This document shows, in pieces, positions 4,075 through 53,563 of a DNA stretch of 53,750 nucleotides. The position numbers and the translations under genes were made by a program. The DNA comes from Melioribacteraceae bacterium (lineage in GTDB: Bacteria; Bacteroidota; Ignavibacteria; Ignavibacteriales; Melioribacteraceae): contig JAIOZI010000032.1 of the NCBI GenBank assembly GCA_021740785.1, positions 1 through 53,750 on the forward strand, given 5' to 3'. Position 1 is the first letter of the stretch, and every line of letters begins with the position of its first letter. The notes beneath the pieces are model-generated. The model had not been told where the DNA came from. It saw only the letters and a program-made list of their open reading frames with translations, and did not search any database.

Positions 4075-6165
4075 TTATTTCAAGAGAATCATCTTTTTTG
4101 TATCCAAAAAATCATTCGCTTTTATTCTATAGATGTATATTCCGCTTGGTAGATTAGATGCATCGAATTCAATTGAATAAAATCCGGCTGGGAGATATTC
4201 TGAAATCAGAGATTTAACCTCCTCACCTAGTGTATTGTAAACTGTTAGTTTTACAAATGAATCCTCAGGTATGCCATACCGAATTGTTGTAGCAGGATTA
4301 AATGGATTTGGATAATTATTGTATAAGACGTATTCTATTGGGATGCTATTTCCATTTTCATTAATTCCAGTTAAGAAATCAATTGTGGATTCGGTAATAT
4401 TAAATTGAGGTTCGTTTTCATTCCATCTATTTGTATTTAAAAATATTTTAGTGGAATCAGGCAGGTTATCAGCGACTACACTAAAGCGAAGATTCATCAT
4501 TAAACCGTCTTCAGCATTTGGTACAGAATCCGCACCGGTAATTTTAATTATGCCTTCAAAGGAATTAGTTGATTTTGTAAAACCTTCGAATCCAGACGAC
4601 CATTCGTTAATATCAACAAATTGCAGTACAGCCGGATCATATGATAACTCACTGTAAAAAGAAATAATGTTTGATACATTATTTAAATGTACTGGTACAT
4701 TTATTAGTTCCCCTTGTATATAATTAATGTTTTCTTCCATTGAAATTATACCATCCGCATTGAGCTGTTCAATATAGGGGAGAGAATCAATTAATTCGGC
4801 TACATACTGAAGGATTAGAGATGCATCATAGGAGGATATTGTGCTATCTAAACTAACATCGGCATTGGCTGTGCCTTGGCAGAATAAAGTATCGTATCCT
4901 ACTAATTCTTTGAGAATTAAAGAGGCATCATAAGCTTGAACTATCCCGTTTACATCAACATCACCATAATCGGGAATTGGTTCAATATAAACTCCGCCGT
5001 TTTGAATTGTCACAGAATCGGTTCCAGTGTCAAATATCGCGCTTTCTATCTCTATTGGAACAAAACTGCAAATTTCGCCAGTTACAAGAAATTTCAGATA
5101 GTAAAGCACTCCCTCCCCAGAAATTGGTTCTGCACCGGCGCTAGCTGTAATTAATAGTGAATCAGTTTCATTTACTTCAATCATCCAATCTTTACCGGAT
5201 AGGAGAGTTCCTGTTGTATCGATTCCAAGGAATTCTAAACCGGTTTGGTAGCTGTTGAAATTAATTTCTGCTGAAGAATAAGAGTGCTCTTGGAAAAATG
5301 TTAAAATTGGGATTAATATTGTATCATTATTAATACATGAATATAGGTTAATTGTTATAATGATGTTAATATTCGTTGTATCTTCTTCTTGAAGCTTTGT
5401 AAAAGTGAGAGTTACGTTTCCATAATTATCGCTTAGATCCGAGTAATCAACAAAAAAGAGGTCTGCCCCTAGAGTATCGCCTTGTGTTGTAAAAGTAAGT
5501 GTATCGAGACCTGAATGGAAAGCTTTGTGAATTGCATGCCCAGCTGGATATTCAAAAGTATTCCCTGTCGTAGAATGGAATAATAATCCATCAATATCCC
5601 CACCAGCATGAGGGTTATTTAATTGTGTTAGAACTTCATAGGTTCCATCTGGTAAATTTATTATTGCTGGGTCTGAAAAGTTTGATGGAATAAGTAAAGT
5701 ATTGATAGAAGGATATACTGTGAATTCAAAAACTTCTAAAGTCGACAAGGATTCAAAAAATACATCGACTGAACCATGATTGTCCCCTAAATTCGAATAG
5801 TCAACAAAAAAAAGATATCCGATAATATCTGAGGGCGAATTAGAAAAGGAGAATATTTTGGAAATACTAGAAATTGATGCATGCATTGAATGTCCATTTG
5901 GCCAAATTGATGGATCATCTTGAAATTTTGTAATATAAAATACTTCATCAATATCGCCGCCAGCATGTGCACCATTAAAAGTCGCCCATACTTGATAATC
6001 ATCTGGAGCTAGGTTTACTTCGAGTGCATTACTGAACTGATCGGGTATCATCACAGTATTCAAATTTGGGTAGGCAGTTACCGTATACTGAGATTGACAC
6101 AATGACCAAGTGCATAGATAGTGCATTGCAAAAATGAAATAAAAAAGGATAAAATATTTTTTCAC
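4075..6165 (-). CDS. large secreted protein with tandem repeats, cohesin/dockerin-like domains and T9SS sorting domain
   Basis: 696 residues. A signal peptide is followed by two diverged copies of a ~115-residue domain (each with YP.(L/I)NT..IP..F and HAGGDID), a cohesin-like beta domain (about 275-400), a dockerin-like segment with two calcium-loop-like repeats (GDVDVNG..QAYDASLIL and ADVSLDS..SSYDASLIL), a second cohesin-like domain (about 475-590) and the T9SS sorting domain (NNYPNPFNPATT ... KKMILLK). Start is GTG with GGAGG seven bases upstream. Domain names are by pattern; function (surface adhesion or complex assembly) is inference. No catalytic domain is visible. Confidence 0.85.
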   Translation of the reverse strand: MKKYFILFYFIFAMHYLCTWSLCQSQYTVTAYPNLNTVMIPDQFSNALEVNLAPDDYQVWATFNGAHAGGDIDEVFYITKFQDDPSIWPNGHSMHASISSISKIFSFSNSPSDIIGYLFFVDYSNLGDNHGSVDVFFESLSTLEVFEFTVYPSINTLLIPSNFSDPAIINLPDGTYEVLTQLNNPHAGGDIDGLLFHSTTGNTFEYPAGHAIHKAFHSGLDTLTFTTQGDTLGADLFFVDYSDLSDNYGNVTLTFTKLQEEDTTNINIIITINLYSCINNDTILIPILTFFQEHSYSSAEINFNSYQTGLEFLGIDTTGTLLSGKDWMIEVNETDSLLITASAGAEPISGEGVLYYLKFLVTGEICSFVPIEIESAIFDTGTDSVTIQNGGVYIEPIPDYGDVDVNGIVQAYDASLILKELVGYDTLFCQGTANADVSLDSTISSYDASLILQYVAELIDSLPYIEQLNADGIISMEENINYIQGELINVPVHLNNVSNIISFYSELSYDPAVLQFVDINEWSSGFEGFTKSTNSFEGIIKITGADSVPNAEDGLMMNLRFSVVADNLPDSTKIFLNTNRWNENEPQFNITESTIDFLTGINENGNSIPIEYVLYNNYPNPFNPATTIRYGIPEDSFVKLTVYNTLGEEVKSLISEYLPAGFYSIEFDASNLPSGIYIYRIKANDFLDTKKMILLK

Positions 6166-16688: not shown

Positions 16689-17087
16689 ATGGGAATAACT
16701 GCTAGAAATTGGCGTGAATATCCACAACGTTACCGAATGGAAGCAGCTAAATGTAATAAATGCGGAAAAATATTTTTCCCTCCGAGATTAGTCTGCAATG
16801 AGTGCGGTAACAGGGAATTTGAACAAGTTAAACTAGCCGGTGAAGGAAAATTGAAAACTTTTACGGTGATAAGAGTTGCTCCTTCGAATTTTATAGATGA
16901 GCAGCCTTACGCAGTAGGTATTGTTGAATTAACCGACGGTGTTTCAACACTGATGCAGATTACTGATTGCGATCCGGATGAACTTTCAATCGGCATGCGG
17001 GTAAAAATTGAATTCAGAAAAGTGCAGACTGAAGGTGATGCCGGAATTTTAATGTACGGTTATAAAGCGGTTCCTTTAAGGGAATAA
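16689..17087 (+). CDS. DUF35 zinc-ribbon/OB-fold scaffold protein
   Basis: 132 residues. Four cysteines at 22, 25, 36 and 39 (CNKCG ... CNECG) make a zinc ribbon, followed by an OB-fold (GKLKTFTVIRVAPSNF, YAVGIVELTDG, RVKIEF). In archaea this protein bridges thiolase and HMG-CoA synthase into one particle; its position here as third gene argues for the same job. No enzyme activity expected. Confidence 0.9.
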   Translation: MGITARNWREYPQRYRMEAAKCNKCGKIFFPPRLVCNECGNREFEQVKLAGEGKLKTFTVIRVAPSNFIDEQPYAVGIVELTDGVSTLMQITDCDPDELSIGMRVKIEFRKVQTEGDAGILMYGYKAVPLRE

Positions 17088-17874
17088 GAGAATTGTTGAG
17101 ATAATTCTGCATTTTATTTTTTTGATAAGAAATCCTTATTAATAATTACTGTATAAGTCTTATCAAAAAAGATAATGTATTTATAAAAACGTGTAGGGAA
17201 TTTGTCTACTGCAAATCTATAAATTCAGGAATGATTGCAGGTTAAATCCAGATTTTCAGATTGAAAACCCGGGTTAATACGGATGTGTAATATGAGTTAC
17301 TTGAGTTGGCTGTAAAGATACTTGTGATTATGAAAACCGTTTTCACAGTTTAAATTGCAGCCGGTGAATTTGAGTGCGCTCACTTTATAAAAAACATCAC
17401 TGCTAATTGTTGTGGATTATTACTTCCTTTTTTTTGATGTGATACATCCCGATAAAATTGTAATAAAAACCGCATACTCAGATTATACCTATATTCATTA
17501 TCTTTCCCTGGAATATTTTTAAAATTTTCCGAATAATTCAACCCAGATTTTCCATTGGAAAATCTGCCCTTCAGGCCGACAATTTGTAAGTTGAGAAATA
17601 TCAGATACTTAGCCAAATAGAAATTTTGGAATTCGTTATATGAGTAAAATATTTCTCTTACAAATTGTCGGGGTTAATCCCGCAACATAAAATGTTTTAA
17701 TAAAATATTTTATTAGCGGTCTCCGGCAATAATTCGTTTCCAATGAATTTTTTGGGATCAATATGTTATATTCATAATTGTTGGACAGAATAATTTTCAT
17801 ATTCCAGCACACCATTGATGATGATTATTTTTTATATTCCATCTCGCAAATAAAAATTACGGAGCACTAATAGA
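17088..17874. repeat. long non-coding stretch with degenerate palindromic repeats
   Basis: About 790 bases with no credible gene. It contains a 10-base-stem palindrome CAGATTTTCC/GGAAAATCTG at 17544-17566, a 15-base perfect inverted repeat CCGACAATTTGTAAG at 17576-17590 with its complement at 17657-17671, and near 17250-17277 a sequence similar to the complement of the first palindrome (CAGATTTTC...GAAAACCCGGGTT). Two further 'gggttaat(a/c)c' words occur. This looks like remnants of a dispersed palindromic repeat family. The prfB promoter should lie near its right end. Confidence 0.5.
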
Positions 17875-49185: not shown

Positions 49186-49548
49186 CTGAAGAAAGAAAAT
49201 GAATTATCTGATAGATTAAGTCCCAGAGAGAAAGAAGTTTTTGAATTAATAGGGGAAGGAAAGGGAAACAAAGAGATTTCTGAGTTAATCTATATTGCAC
49301 CCTCAACAGTGAAAGTCCATAAAAAGAAACCTACACCAATAAGAATAAGAAAAATATTTACTCAAGTGACAAAAGGAGCAATTTATATGAGAGATTCGAT
49401 TGATGGTATCCCTATGATCAAAAAAATAAAAGTTGAATTAATATTTAACAAGCCCGAAAAAAATGAATATAGATTTACTTTTCGACTATTATCTGTTTCA
49501 TCTCGTTGTGTTGCCTATGTACCAAATAGCAGAATTTCAAGCTTTTAA
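49186..49548 (+). pseudogene. detached LuxR-type HTH fragment fused to unrelated frame
   Basis: The frame opens after a stop at 49183-49185 and encodes a LuxR/NarL helix-turn-helix (RLSPREKEVFELIGEG, then NKEISELIYIAPSTVKVHKK) without a start codon. After HKK at about 49330 the similarity to the 51318 gene ends and unrelated residues follow to 49548. DNA in the shared part (49198-49326) is close to 51382-51510. A GTG at 49309 could start only the unrelated tail. So this is a broken duplicate of the downstream regulator. Confidence 0.75.
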
Positions 49549-50046: not shown

Positions 50047-50337
50047 ATGAAAAACATTACAGATTTTGAAGATATTTTAAAAGAGAGTTACGGAGAGAAA
50101 GGAACGCCTTCAAGAGATAAATTTGATGCAGATTCTTTAGCATTTAGATTAGGAGTTATGTTAAAAGAGGCTAGAAATGAGGCTCAAATGACACAAGACG
50201 AATTAGCCAGAAGGACTGGAACAAAAAAAAGCTATATATCACGAATCGAGAGAGGACAAAGTGATATTCAAATCTCGACATATCATAAATTGATTGAGAT
50301 TGGATTAGGAAAACATTTAAACATCTCGATTGGATAA
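50047..50337 (+). CDS. XRE-family HTH antitoxin (HigA-like)
   Basis: 96 residues. KEARNEAQMTQDELARRTGT and KKSYISRIERGQSDIQIST form a Cro/CI-type helix-turn-helix, with an acidic N-terminal arm. This is the usual partner of Gp49/HigB toxins; here the toxin upstream is broken. It may persist as an autorepressor or an anti-addiction gene. Confidence 0.88.
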   Translation: MKNITDFEDILKESYGEKGTPSRDKFDADSLAFRLGVMLKEARNEAQMTQDELARRTGTKKSYISRIERGQSDIQISTYHKLIEIGLGKHLNISIG

Positions 50338-50805: not shown

Positions 50806-51270
50806 TTGAAATTTAAAAAACGAAATTACCAGGGGATGCCGGTGGAAGACAGTTCGGAATTCTTAATCTTTTATTCTGATGATGAGAATATAACATCCAA
50901 ATTCGTTTCATTTTTTAACGGGAATAATAGAAACACATCGGTTTATCCCACCAGTAACTGGGTTGATTTCTGTGATTGCTTCAGCAGGTTCAATCCCCAA
51001 ACAGCAATAATTGACTTCACAAATAAAAGCGGTTTGCTCTATGAGCTGCAGGAAATTATAGCTAAGAACGGAGAAGTGAAAATCTTAAGTATAGTAAATG
51101 AGAATATTGAACATACAGAATTAGCCAAACTAATAATTATTTCTCAAGGCATTTTATCAATCAACGCGATAGAAAATGAGTTAGAAGATGCATACCGCTC
51201 AGTAGTCTATAATCTAAAATATGTTTGCGAGAGTATGTTAAGGGTGTGGAATATAATAACCAATTCATAA
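50806..51270 (+). CDS. divergent receiver-domain-like protein
   Basis: 154 residues. FLIFYSDDENITSKFVSFF resembles the first strand and acidic pair of a response-regulator receiver, TAIIDFTN holds an Asp where the phospho-acceptor would be, and VKILSIVNEN looks like the switch strand. The Lys of a true receiver is not obvious. Followed by a free LuxR HTH gene, so the two may once have been one NarL-type regulator. Start TTG at 50806; an ATG at 50836 is an alternative. Confidence 0.55.
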   Translation: MKFKKRNYQGMPVEDSSEFLIFYSDDENITSKFVSFFNGNNRNTSVYPTSNWVDFCDCFSRFNPQTAIIDFTNKSGLLYELQEIIAKNGEVKILSIVNENIEHTELAKLIIISQGILSINAIENELEDAYRSVVYNLKYVCESMLRVWNIITNS

Positions 51271-51317
51271 TCCGGGAATACATGATTATTATTAAATGCC
51301 TTTTGAAATGTAAATGA

Positions 51318-51608
51318 TTGACTTTTTTATTCCACTCCCTAAACCGCCTTTGCGAAATTCACTTTATAAAAAATAAAAATGAATTATTGGATAGATTAAG
51401 TACAAGAGAGAAAGAAGTTTTTGATCTAATTGGTGAAGGCAAAGGAAACAAAGAGATTTCTGAAGCAATCTATATTTCCCGATCTACTGTAAAAGTCCAC
51501 AAAAAGAATATTATTAAAAAGTTAAAACTAAACAGCACAAAAGAGTTGGAACGTTTAGCCTACGAAAATCAAAAAAAAGGGGGTAGAAAAAATACCCCAA
51601 AGGGGTAG
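51318..51608 (+). CDS. stand-alone LuxR/NarL-type HTH protein
   Basis: 96 residues. RLSTREKEVFDLIGEG, then NKEISEAIYISRSTVKVHKK and IIKKLKLNSTKELERLA form a complete GerE-type DNA-binding domain. TTG start directly after an in-frame stop; the first ~20 residues are not conserved, and a TTG at 51387 is an alternative. Its last codons overlap the GGGGTA/TACCCC hairpins. Likely a transcription regulator of the MauE/peptide/propeller genes downstream (inference). Confidence 0.75.
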   Translation: MTFLFHSLNRLCEIHFIKNKNELLDRLSTREKEVFDLIGEGKGNKEISEAIYISRSTVKVHKKNIIKKLKLNSTKELERLAYENQKKGGRKNTPKG

Positions 51609-51620
51609 GAAAAATACCCC
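51580..51620 (+). promoter_or_regulatory. tandem GGGGTA-N7-TACCCC inverted repeats
   Basis: Two near-identical units: GGGGTA GAAAAAA TACCCC (51580-51598) and GGGGTA GGAAAAA TACCCC (51602-51620). They overlap the end of the HTH gene and lie about 60 bases before the MauE-like gene. The tandem, precisely repeated dyads suggest a protein-binding operator; a terminator or RNA structure is possible but lacks a T-run. Confidence 0.6.
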
Positions 51621-51676
51621 CTTTAGCATTTGACATAAAGAAAATGACTGATTAAATTGAAATCGAAAATTAATTA

Positions 51677-52054
51677 ATGAAAATGCTTACACATAAAATT
51701 GAATTAATAAATAGAATTGATAAAGAGGAAATAAGAAAATTATTTTCTACAGTTTCTTATTACCTCATTGCTTTAATACTGCTTTTCACCGGCATAACAA
51801 AACTAATTGATCCCAAACCACTGGTTGAAACACTGCAATCCCTAAAATTACTTGCTGATGAAATCACAATCTTTACTTCTGCCACTCTGCCTGTAATTGA
51901 GATTGGGTTGGGAGCAATGCTGATGTTAAAAATAAAGCAAGACCTGGCAATTAAATTTTCACTGCCTCTCTTTTTCTTTCTATTCAACCCTACTAAGGAT
52001 TGGAAAATCATTGTAGGTGCCTGCCCGCAATCCTTTGGTGGGTTTTGGGAGTGA
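51677..52054 (+). CDS. MauE/DoxX-like membrane protein, probably truncated
   Basis: 125 residues with three hydrophobic helices: VSYYLIALILLFTGITKLIDP, IFTSATLPVIEIGLGAMLML and LAIKFSLPLFFFLF, the start of a MauE/DoxX protein. The expected fourth helix and the usual cysteine-containing loop are missing; instead the frame ends in KDWKIIVGACPQSFGGFWE. Another frame over the same DNA reads YSTLLRIGKSL before a stop, which hints at a frameshift. The family supplies reducing or oxidising power for disulfides in exported proteins. Suitable partner for the Cys-rich peptide next to it. Confidence 0.65.
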   Translation: MKMLTHKIELINRIDKEEIRKLFSTVSYYLIALILLFTGITKLIDPKPLVETLQSLKLLADEITIFTSATLPVIEIGLGAMLMLKIKQDLAIKFSLPLFFFLFNPTKDWKIIVGACPQSFGGFWE

Positions 52055-52183
52055 AAAGCAATTGAGAATATGTATTAATAGTATGTAATAATAAATTAAG
52101 AAAATATTTTCTTTATGGTGTTTATCCCACATGTATAATTGGTCTTTAAATTAATTTTTTTAAAAAAATAGGAGAAAAGAAAG

Positions 52184-52426
52184 ATGATAATAACAAAAAA
52201 AATATTGAAAACTATTCCATCGATATTCGTAGTATTGATATTTGCAATCAATATATTACTAATTTTTCAATCTGAGATCAAAGCTGATTACCCTGCTGAA
52301 TATGGATGGTGGGGAACAAGTTCAAGTTGCGAGCCCGGCACAATAGTTACATGGAATTGTTATGGAGGTACACCCATTGAATGTATTGTTGGTGAAACTG
52401 GAAAGGGATTTTGCCCAGATCACTAG
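52184..52426 (+). CDS. small secreted four-cysteine peptide
   Basis: 80 residues: basic start, a strong hydrophobic segment (about 13-28), then an AD cleavage-like point near 34-35 and a mature part with Cys49, Cys59, Cys67 and Cys77. Tryptophans, glycines and the even spacing suggest two disulfides. Similar to short signal-peptide-bearing Cys-rich peptides that occur beside six-bladed beta-propeller lipoproteins in Bacteroidota (NVEALA-like). No known function. Good AGGAG before the ATG. Confidence 0.7.
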   Translation: MIITKKILKTIPSIFVVLIFAINILLIFQSEIKADYPAEYGWWGTSSSCEPGTIVTWNCYGGTPIECIVGETGKGFCPDH

Positions 52427-52442
52427 AAGTTAATAATTTTAT

Positions 52443-52461
52443 GGGAGGATAAGATCCTCCC
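52443..52461 (+). terminator. hairpin between peptide and beta-propeller genes
   Basis: GGGAGGAT (52443-52450) and ATCCTCCC (52454-52461) form a perfect 8-base stem with a 3-base loop, followed by GCATCTTTTG. A compact terminator or attenuator that could let the small peptide be made in excess over the following lipoprotein. Confidence 0.65.
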
Positions 52462-52510
52462 GCATCTTTTGAATGATATTGTCTTCATCTTTAATTAAGG
52501 GAAATTGTAA

Positions 52511-53563
52511 ATGAGTCGTTTAAAGATAATACTAATTGCAATACTTACATTTTCTTGCAATAATAACTCACTTGATAAGACTGATAATTCATTAGATACA
52601 GTAATTGATACGTTAGGTTGTATGAATTCTCTCTTTGATATAGAAAAAATCCCACTAAATATAAATGAAATTAAAATTCCCTTTGGCAATATTGTTTACT
52701 ACACTTGTGATAAAGATGAGAACATTTATTTAATTGATAATGATTCTGAAATATTTGTTTTTAATATATATGGAAAATTTAAGAGAAAATACACTAATAT
52801 TGGCAGAGGACCAGGAGAATATCTGTCAATAGAACGGATGGCCTTTGATAGTTATAATAACATTTATATTGATGATTGGAGACAATTGAGTGTAAAAAAA
52901 TATGATCTCGATTTTAACTTTATTAATGAGTTTAAAAAGGATCAAGCAATACCCTGTGTTGATATGAGAATTGTTGAAGATCGACTCTTTCTTTTGACAC
53001 CCTTTGCTTCCGATAATTCAATCTGTGTTTATGATATCAATACATTTCAAAAAGTGGAGGAAACCGGAAAAGTTGATGCTTTACAAAAGAAATTCTATAC
53101 AAGATTGCATTCCGGTTCCATAATTGTTGATGATTGTATCTATTATAGCTTGCCAAATTATTATCAAATCCATCGAATACGTGAATACGAAAAGAAAGAA
53201 ATAATTCGGGATGCGCCAACCCATTTCGTGCAAGTATCCGAAAGGATTCAGAACCCATTTAAAGATCTGAATAAACAATCGGCACTTTTTAGAATATATA
53301 AAGAAGGGGATTATTTTTTTATAGTTACTTCACCTGCAAAGGGAAAAATTAAGTTCAAGGCAGGATACAAATTCCCAACTGATATTGTCAATAAAAAAGG
53401 AGAAGTATTAAAAGAAAAACTATTTTTTAAAAATATTAATAGCATTCCAGTGAATTATGATGATAAAAAGTATGTATCATACGGTTATAATGAGATTATG
53501 AATATTGAATCAAAAGGGAATGAGATCAAACATTATATATTACTAATTAAATATAAATATTGA
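52511..53563 (+). CDS. six-bladed beta-propeller lipoprotein
   Basis: 350 residues. Signal with lipobox ending LTFSC (Cys16), so a lipoprotein. Recurrent blades: ENIYLIDNDSEIFVFNIYGK, IGRGPGEYLSIERMAFDSYN and NIYIDDWRQLSVKKYDLDF, of the NHL-like six-bladed propeller group common in Bacteroidota. Stop is directly followed by the ATG of a broken small frame. Confidence 0.8.
   Translation: MSRLKIILIAILTFSCNNNSLDKTDNSLDTVIDTLGCMNSLFDIEKIPLNINEIKIPFGNIVYYTCDKDENIYLIDNDSEIFVFNIYGKFKRKYTNIGRGPGEYLSIERMAFDSYNNIYIDDWRQLSVKKYDLDFNFINEFKKDQAIPCVDMRIVEDRLFLLTPFASDNSICVYDINTFQKVEETGKVDALQKKFYTRLHSGSIIVDDCIYYSLPNYYQIHRIREYEKKEIIRDAPTHFVQVSERIQNPFKDLNKQSALFRIYKEGDYFFIVTSPAKGKIKFKAGYKFPTDIVNKKGEVLKEKLFFKNINSIPVNYDDKKYVSYGYNEIMNIESKGNEIKHYILLIKYKY

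What the first reader, a model, noticed from the sequence alone, without database searches (positions are those of the whole stretch)
50806..53563. Possible undescribed secreted-peptide module
A REC-like protein, a LuxR HTH with tandem operators, a MauE-like membrane protein, an exported four-Cys 80-residue peptide, an attenuator-type hairpin and a six-bladed propeller lipoprotein stand in one row. MauE-type proteins handle disulfide redox, which suits the peptide. The set resembles NVEALA-type peptide/propeller loci of Bacteroidota, whose function is unknown. Here MauE seems truncated, so this copy may be incomplete.
Basis: inference. Interest (0 to 1): 0.65.

Follow-up and report, generated by a model that had tools for sequence, protein, structure and literature searches.

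The report
Modular variable cysteine-peptide and propeller system
The window holds a worn copy of a gene system in which bacteria of the Ignavibacteria group make small exported cysteine-rich peptides, usually with a constant front end and very different cores, each encoded beside a matching propeller protein; the layout suggests competition or self-recognition between bacteria, which remains to be tested.

Summary
The gene row is real but two parts are broken. The REC and LuxR ORFs are one regulator gene split by a 99-bp TA-flanked element. MauE has lost its DCGCFG motif. The 80-aa four-Cys peptide and the PF17170 propeller are open. An intact module lies on contig C64 of this genome, and related peptides occur in 14 of 391 class genomes, own included. 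The order is MauE, often an O-antigen-ligase/TPR protein, peptide, propeller, thioredoxin-like protein, often an RND pump. Of 30 peptides with a shared leader, 27 have a propeller within 700 bp downstream and 26 cores have an even Cys count. Leaders are alike within a genome; cores are not, but core similarity tracks propeller similarity (Mantel r 0.60, P 0.0002; Spearman only 0.18, P 0.03). Flanking-gene fragments resemble displaced toxin/immunity cassettes. The window peptide lacks this leader and joins the system by position; its best match has E 0.011. Best reading: a polymorphic exported-peptide/cognate-propeller system for competition or recognition, of which the window is a decayed copy. 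It is laid out like NVEALA/propeller loci but has another leader.

The parts
49196..49548 (+). Relic of an earlier copy: 133-bp LuxR fragment (84% to 51376-51508) running into a remnant of a propeller C-terminus (ORF 49309-49548)
   Evidence: self-BLAST; the remnant reads like the C-terminus of the second propeller of contig C109 (by eye)
50806..51608 (+). One REC-like/LuxR regulator gene, now split into two ORFs (50806-51270 and 51318-51608)
   Evidence: flanks without the element and with one TA give one open frame of 233 codons plus stop; GerE PF00196 1.4e-17
51241..51339 (.). 99-bp MITE-like element, imperfect terminal inverted repeats AGGGTGTGGAATA/TATTCCACTCCC, TA on both sides
   Evidence: four other copies at 83-90% and one 43-bp partial match in this genome; sharp ends in the alignment of five copies; TA and ends
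51580..51620 (.). Two tandem palindromes 22 bp apart (GGGGTA-N7-TACCCC), probable operators
   Evidence: the only pair of such palindromes 19-26 bp apart in the window; a similar pair upstream of MauE in L010
51630..51659 (+). Promoter-like stretch TTGACA ... TAAATTG, identical in the C109 copy
   Evidence: sequence; promoter function is inference
51677..52054 (+). MauE-type membrane protein, truncated, probably not functional
   Evidence: PF07291 1.8e-11, profile 3-82/128; DCGCFG absent in the alignment of 14 MauE sequences, where the C109 copy also lacks it
52014..52038 (.). Insert of about 25 bp at the codons of the MauE DCGCFG motif (borders approximate)
   Evidence: comparison by eye with the C64 copy; an insert at the same codons in L103
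52184..52426 (+). 80-aa exported peptide, N-terminal hydrophobic signal, 4 Cys in the core (short-leader class, assigned by position)
   Evidence: short Cys peptides in the same position in L060, L100 and L029; best sequence match E 0.011
52443..52461 (+). Hairpin between peptide and propeller genes (8-bp stem)
   Evidence: 15 of 26 such gaps have z below -2, this one -1.67
52511..53563 (+). Propeller with lipoprotein-like signal (PF17170)
   Evidence: AlphaFold all-beta model; best PDB match 4raa, Bacteroides fragilis BF0058

Best explanation
The window carries a partly decayed copy of a polymorphic secreted-peptide system of Ignavibacteria. Shown from sequence, in the long-leader loci: a constant leader followed by a hypervariable core with a mostly even Cys count; a propeller gene next to nearly every peptide; MauE and thioredoxin-like CxxC membrane proteins in the same gene row; core similarity that follows propeller similarity but not leader similarity; fragments of flanking genes. 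Inferred: the peptide leaves through Sec, MauE with the thioredoxin-like protein forms its disulfides, the O-ligase-like protein may modify it, and it acts at or beyond the outer membrane. The cognate propeller lipoprotein binds it and serves as self-protection or self-recognition partner. The most likely use is competition or kin discrimination among close relatives, with control by a LuxR-type regulator in some loci and by a poly-T promoter in others. The window copy has a split regulator and a broken MauE but an open peptide and propeller; it may be silent, or served by the MauE and thioredoxin-like protein of contig C64.
For: Intact version in the same genome: MauE, Cys-rich peptide, propeller, thioredoxin-like protein, RND pump. 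30 long-leader peptides in 19 loci of 15 genomes; a propeller within 700 bp downstream in 27 of 30, intact in 26; MauE (5) or the O-ligase (10, of which one is a 60-aa fragment and two are cut by a contig end) directly upstream in 15 of 30. 26 of 30 cores have an even Cys count; Cys is 11.6% of core and 0.3% of leader residues. Leaders are more alike within than between genomes (P 0.0005); cores and propellers are not (P 0.61, 0.93). Core-propeller Mantel r 0.60, P 0.0002, the same after removing leader similarity and shared genome; leader-core r 0.03. Cores with shuffled letters reach at most r 0.23 in 50 trials. In G074, leader DNA 92-98% identical between copies, ending within about five residues of the leader/core border. 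Fragments: MauE 3' ends, an O-ligase end of 60 aa upstream of a peptide in L091 and RND 5' ends in L092 and L093 and L100. T9-T15 in the promoter spacer of 7 of 20 MauE genes, with T15, T15 and T9 in three copies of one genome. Displaced toxin/immunity pairs with conserved homology are described for CDI/Rhs (PMC4927057, passages).
Against: No activity is known for any peptide. Cores are poor in Lys and Arg (1.7%, 2.2%), unlike classical cationic bacteriocins. By rank correlation the core-propeller link is weaker (Spearman 0.18, P 0.03); core-thioredoxin is not significant (0.08, P 0.26, n 18), while leader-thioredoxin is (0.27, P 0.02), so the thioredoxin-like gene may not travel with the core. 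Correlated similarity shows co-inheritance, not binding. The Cys parity count is not corrected for relatedness. The poly-T pattern is not exclusive: 31 hits at 25 places against 15 hits of the reversed control, and 9 of 24 inspected places precede such modules. The window peptide has no significant sequence relative (best E 0.011) and was not part of these statistics; the window lacks a thioredoxin-like gene beside it and an intact MauE.
Confidence: 0.45

Rival explanations
1. Variable surface peptides: the peptide, perhaps glycosylated by the O-ligase-like protein, is displayed on the cell surface with the propeller, and variation evades phages or predators rather than acting on relatives.
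For: O-ligase-like gene or fragment directly upstream of the peptide in 10 of 30 cases; Wzy_C domain (1.5e-21, 1.3e-23), with TIGR03097 O-glycosylation ligase as a relative below its cut-off; poly-T promoters, which in this family also precede lipoprotein-like genes; acidic, Gly/Tyr-rich cores.
Against: Does not need core-propeller pairing across genera, nor propellers without a peptide (22 of 53 intact ones by an automatic rule that misses several peptides).
Confidence: 0.25
2. Peptide pheromone: the peptide is a strain-specific signal, the propeller its receptor or carrier, and the LuxR regulator its response arm.
For: LuxR-type gene within about 160 bp upstream of MauE at 4 of 20 MauE starts (window, L053, L059, L102); tandem palindromes there; cognate pairing.
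Against: 18 of 24 loci have no LuxR-model hit. Sensor genes were not searched for; in L054 and L091 a membrane protein that I did not test precedes the response regulator.
Confidence: 0.12
3. Two-subunit periplasmic redox protein on the plan of methylamine dehydrogenase: small Cys-rich subunit plus propeller, matured by MauE and a MauD-like thioredoxin.
For: Parts list parallels the mau cluster (recalled: MauA small and disulfide-rich, MauB propeller, MauE, MauD); MauE PF07291 8.3e-24 (C64) and 2.5e-21 (L054); MauE-redoxin fusion in L092.
Against: Core similarities are low between most pairs (mean about 0.10 of self-score), unlike an enzyme subunit; several different pairs per genome.
Confidence: 0.1

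Closest known systems
NVEALA (PF14055) peptide / propeller loci
   Same: Short exported peptide with constant leader and variable Cys-containing core (leader similarity 0.40 against core 0.11 over the 6 peptides of one genome); a propeller matching the model trained here directly downstream of 6 of 6 (E 3.6e-4 to 5e-18), a CTSC protein (weak thioredoxin-model hit, 0.013) and a Wzy_C-like protein nearby
   Different: Leader not alignable; no match over cut-off in this genome; no MauE- or RND-model hit in the two NVEALA regions read
Candidate RiPP clusters with mauE/mauD in Streptomyces (decRiPPter, PMC7794033; passages read)
   Same: MauE (3 families), and once MauD, beside precursors with at least 8 Cys, interpreted as modification of the precursor
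   Different: Actinobacteria; the passages read mention no propeller, leader/core exchange or RND pump
CDI/Rhs toxin-immunity cassettes (PMC4927057; passages read)
   Same: Constant part, variable part with its own partner gene, displaced modules downstream that keep conserved homology
   Different: Here the constant part is a 53-59 residue leader, the variable part a 29-93 residue Cys-rich core, the partner a propeller; no toxin activity shown
Methylamine utilisation (mau) cluster
   Same: MauE family protein, thioredoxin-like protein, small Cys-rich exported protein, propeller (mau side recalled)
   Different: Hypervariable peptides, several pairs per genome, no evidence of a quinone cofactor

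Membership tests
NVEALA peptides (PF14055) | match to PF14055 over its cut-off / NVEALA motif at the end of the leader | tested here: not met
   own genome 0 matches over cut-off; window and C64 peptides 0 Pfam hits; hhalign of leaders 6.5% probability
NVEALA-type loci (as an architecture) | exported Cys peptide beside a DUF5128-type propeller | tested here: met
   window PF17170 beside the 80-aa peptide; 27 of 30 long-leader peptides with propeller downstream; same layout in G238
Long-leader peptide family described here | match of the window peptide to the leader model | tested here: not met
   no hit of the leader model to the window peptide; assigned to the system by position only
MauE family (PF07291) | membrane domain over the curated cut-off with the DCGCFG motif | tested here: not met
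   window over the cut-off (44.9 against 27 bits) but profile 3-82 of 128 and motif lost; the C64 copy meets both
LuxR-type response regulator | GerE HTH plus receiver domain in one protein | tested here: inconclusive
   GerE met; the receiver-like half has no significant Pfam hit; one frame only when the element is left out
DUF5128 propeller (PF17170) | match over the curated cut-off, propeller fold | tested here: met
   44.8 against 22.9 bits; all-beta AlphaFold model with propellers as best PDB matches, mean pLDDT only 69.6
Polymorphic toxin-immunity systems (CDI/Rhs kind) | constant region, variable region co-inherited with its partner, displaced fragments | tested here: met
   in the long-leader loci, with the weaker Spearman value told in the report; not testable for the window copy alone
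Polymorphic toxin-immunity systems (CDI/Rhs kind) | growth inhibition by the variable part, neutralised by the partner | not testable with these tools
   needs experiment
RiPP | leader-guided post-translational modification by a linked enzyme | not testable with these tools
   ligase-like and redox proteins are linked; modification unknown
Known anti-phage defence | match to PADLOC models | tested here: not met
   0 hits for the 7 proteins given

The most novel reading that the evidence does not exclude
A new class of polymorphic interbacterial weapon or recognition system: tiny disulfide-rich peptides with an exchangeable core, each paired with its own propeller lipoprotein as immunity partner or receptor, diversified by swapping core-propeller cassettes under a constant leader and in part switched by a poly-T promoter. 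NVEALA/propeller loci of Bacteroidota would be the same class with another leader.
Probability: 0.4. Interest if true: 0.88.

Novelty: new variant of a known kind. Interest (0 to 1): 0.68.

Why it matters
Peptide/propeller loci of this kind carry only family names, and my searches of the held open-licence library found no paper on them (in one search only 15 of 61 papers were listed). The evidence here turns 'function unknown' into a testable claim: variable core and neighbouring propeller form a matched pair. If the pair is a toxin and its immunity partner, this is a new interbacterial system; if it is display or signalling, it is a new variation or pheromone system. A binding test and a competition test would decide.

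Tried and rejected
REC and LuxR as two proteins: rejected, one gene split by an element. NVEALA membership of the peptide: rejected. Anti-phage defence: no PADLOC hit for 7 proteins. Plasmid-borne MauE: tblastn with the C64 MauE found no match in 72,556 plasmid records. Poly-T promoter as exclusive to the module: not so, 9 of 24 inspected places. Core-thioredoxin co-inheritance: not significant. MauE hits in a Desulfobacteraceae and a Chloroflexi contig (L104, L105): no propeller- or leader-model hit beside them. Rows dropped: the weak leader match of G305 (E 7e-4, inside a 495-aa frame) was not fetched; weak PF14055 hits below cut-off in G053 and G120: G053 was fetched and shows no propeller- or MauE-model hit, G120 was not fetched; one of 25 poly-T places had no locus; one of 26 peptide-propeller gaps was too short to fold; 4 of 30 peptides without an intact propeller downstream were left out of the Mantel test. 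Literature on MauE with bacteriocin: 113 papers, ten listed, general bacteriocin or unrelated titles (listing only). Note 6 in the notebook gives 26 distinct poly-T places; the recount is 25.

Full report
Observation. The region 50806-53563 holds the gene row described. Pfam supports the LuxR HTH (PF00196, 1.4e-17), MauE (PF07291, 1.8e-11) and the propeller (PF17170, 1.3e-11); the 154-aa first ORF and the 80-aa peptide have no hit above a cut-off. The first two ORFs are one gene. The stretch 51241-51339 is a 99-bp element with imperfect terminal inverted repeats and TA on both sides; four more copies at 83-90% identity lie on contigs C81, C30, C51 and C34 of this genome, and a 43-bp partial match on C106. 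The flanks with one TA form a single frame of 233 codons plus stop, with a REC-like first half and the LuxR HTH. Two palindromes 22 bp apart, at 51580 and 51602, are the only such pair in the window. A similar pair stands upstream of a second MauE copy on contig C109; that stretch and the gene start are 83% identical to the window over 420 alignment columns. MauE stops before its DCGCFG motif, with an insert of about 25 bp there; the C109 copy is also truncated. A relic of a LuxR gene joined to a propeller tail stands at 49196-49548. So the window copy is worn, with peptide and propeller still open.

The window peptide. In its own genome it finds only itself at a meaningful score (the two others have E 1.4 and 6). 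The leader model does not hit it, and its best match among all ORFs collected is E 0.011, to an 81-aa 6-Cys peptide in L100 that is followed by a propeller, a thioredoxin-like gene and MauE. Its place in the system therefore rests on position: short-signal Cys peptides stand between MauE and a propeller also in L060 and L029. The statistics below are on the long-leader peptides and do not include it.

The intact version. Contig C64 of the same genome carries a complete MauE (8.3e-24), a 110-aa Cys-rich exported peptide, a propeller, a membrane protein with a CAKC motif and an RND-type protein. The C64 peptide alone found 2 of 296 genomes of the phylum, own included. A profile with its first relatives found 10 of 79 genomes of the family, one of them weak and not followed (G305); an improved profile found 14 of 391 of the class. 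A scan of named genomes with MauE gave six loci from Ignavibacteriae, Melioribacter and Ignavibacteriales MAGs, five with propellers and one (L102) cut off in MauE, plus one Desulfobacteraceae and one Chloroflexi contig without propeller or leader hits. So the organism belongs in or near Melioribacteraceae; this is inference.

Leader, core, partner. I took 30 long-leader peptides from 19 loci of 15 genomes. The leader runs from a basic start through a hydrophobic stretch to GDIS..G..I.LF..T.A (consensus). The core after it is 29-93 residues long; 26 of 30 cores have an even number of Cys; Cys makes up 11.6% of core and 0.3% of leader residues. Of the 30, 27 have a propeller within 700 bp downstream (26 intact), one has a thioredoxin-like gene first, and two have no propeller there. 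Directly upstream stand MauE in 5 cases and the O-ligase in 10; of the ten, one is a 60-aa fragment (L091) and two are cut by a contig end (L053, L055). The loci were found by the peptide, not by the propeller, so the adjacency is not built in, though two genomes supplied the first seeds. Leaders are more alike within a genome than between genomes (P 0.0005); cores and propellers are not (P 0.61 and 0.93). Among the 26 complete pairs similarity of cores follows similarity of propellers (Pearson Mantel r 0.60, P 0.0002; the same with leader similarity and shared genome removed), while leader similarity predicts neither (r 0.03 and 0.04). Cores with shuffled letters give r 0.14 on average and at most 0.23 in 50 trials; without the five closest propeller pairs r is 0.41; Spearman is weaker (0.18, P 0.03). 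The signal thus comes mainly from the related pairs. For 18 loci with a thioredoxin-like gene, propeller-thioredoxin is 0.35 (P 0.012), leader-thioredoxin 0.27 (P 0.02), and core-thioredoxin 0.08 (P 0.26), so the thioredoxin-like gene is not shown to travel with the core.

Cassettes. In G074 the leader DNA of four copies is 92-98% identical and the identity ends within about five residues of the leader/core border; MauE copies with their flanks are 92-96% identical; MauE 3' ends recur as fragments. One leader is fused in frame to a stretch that by eye resembles the TPR part of the O-ligase, and a 60-aa O-ligase end precedes a peptide in L091. RND 5' ends recur as fragments in L092 and L093 and L100. 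RND genes or fragments occur in 12 of 24 loci, several of which are short contigs. This is what repeated displacement by recombination in conserved flanks would leave; displaced toxin/immunity pairs with conserved homology are described for CDI and Rhs (PMC4927057, passages).

Regulation. Of 20 MauE starts whose upstream DNA I printed, 7 have T9-T15 after a TTGAC element; three copies in G074 carry T15, T15 and T9. An eighth tract stands before a peptide gene in L100. None of the loci with a tract has a LuxR-model hit; the four MauE genes with a LuxR-type gene within about 160 bp upstream (window, L053, L059, L102) have no tract, and L053 and L102 show repeated palindromes by eye. In the family the poly-T pattern has 31 hits at 25 places in 15 of 79 genomes, against 15 hits of the reversed control. 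Of 24 places inspected 9 precede MauE or peptide/propeller genes, three have less than 350 bp of DNA downstream, and the rest precede other genes. So phase variation is a candidate, not shown. Of 26 peptide-propeller gaps, 15 fold with z below -2, which suggests more peptide than propeller; the window hairpin has a perfect stem but scores only -1.67.

NVEALA. PF14055 has no match over cut-off in this genome; over it are only 1 of 296 phylum genomes (G238, six copies) and the control Bacteroides ihuae. In G238 all six peptides have a constant leader, a variable Cys core and a propeller directly downstream that matches my model (3.6e-4 to 5e-18), with a CTSC protein and a Wzy_C-like protein nearby. 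The leaders do not align with those here (6.5%). I conclude: same architecture, different peptide family.

Structure. The AlphaFold model of the window propeller is all-beta with mean pLDDT 69.6 and pTM 0.70 from 12 sequences. Its best PDB match is BF0058 of Bacteroides fragilis (4raa, TM 0.60), followed by NHL domains. It supports a propeller and says nothing about function.

Interpretation. Shown: module, variable core, co-inheritance of core and propeller, fragments, poly-T tracts of differing length. Inferred: Sec export, disulfides by MauE and the thioredoxin-like protein, binding, phase variation, use in competition or recognition. Literature: MauE beside Cys-rich precursors was proposed for Streptomyces candidate RiPPs (PMC7794033, passages). 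Searches for NVEALA, DUF5128, propeller with MauE and related terms gave no paper on this system, in a library that lacks most subscription journals; I saw 15 of 61 listed.

Noticed in passing
L103 about 4090-4120 and window 52014-52038: Two MauE genes from different genomes carry a short GC-rich insert at the same DCGCFG codons; possibly a small repeat element with a target there.
   Followed up: partly
L029:2884-3504 and 16745-17365: A transglycosylase-like protein (by eye, no Pfam hit) and an NlpC/P60 protein (PF00877 1.8e-11) stand inside the peptide array of G074, possibly extra cargo.
   Followed up: no
L092:7745-8695: MauE fused to an AhpC/redoxin domain, followed by an 8-Cys peptide and a propeller.
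   Followed up: partly
L096:346-2229: 627-aa protein with an N-terminal MauE domain and a C-terminal part without a family above cut-off, in the place of MauE plus O-ligase.
   Followed up: partly
L117, L145, L123 (poly-T places): Similar poly-T promoters precede related lipoprotein-like genes (MQKRYVFLF... / MQKRPFALF...) in other genomes of the family, possible phase-variable surface proteins.
   Followed up: no
L010:7813-8358 (minus strand): Membrane protein with CIEC motif upstream of the second truncated MauE in this genome.
   Followed up: no
window 50047-50337: Small Cro/C1-type HTH protein (PF01381 2.9e-12) upstream of the module.
   Followed up: no
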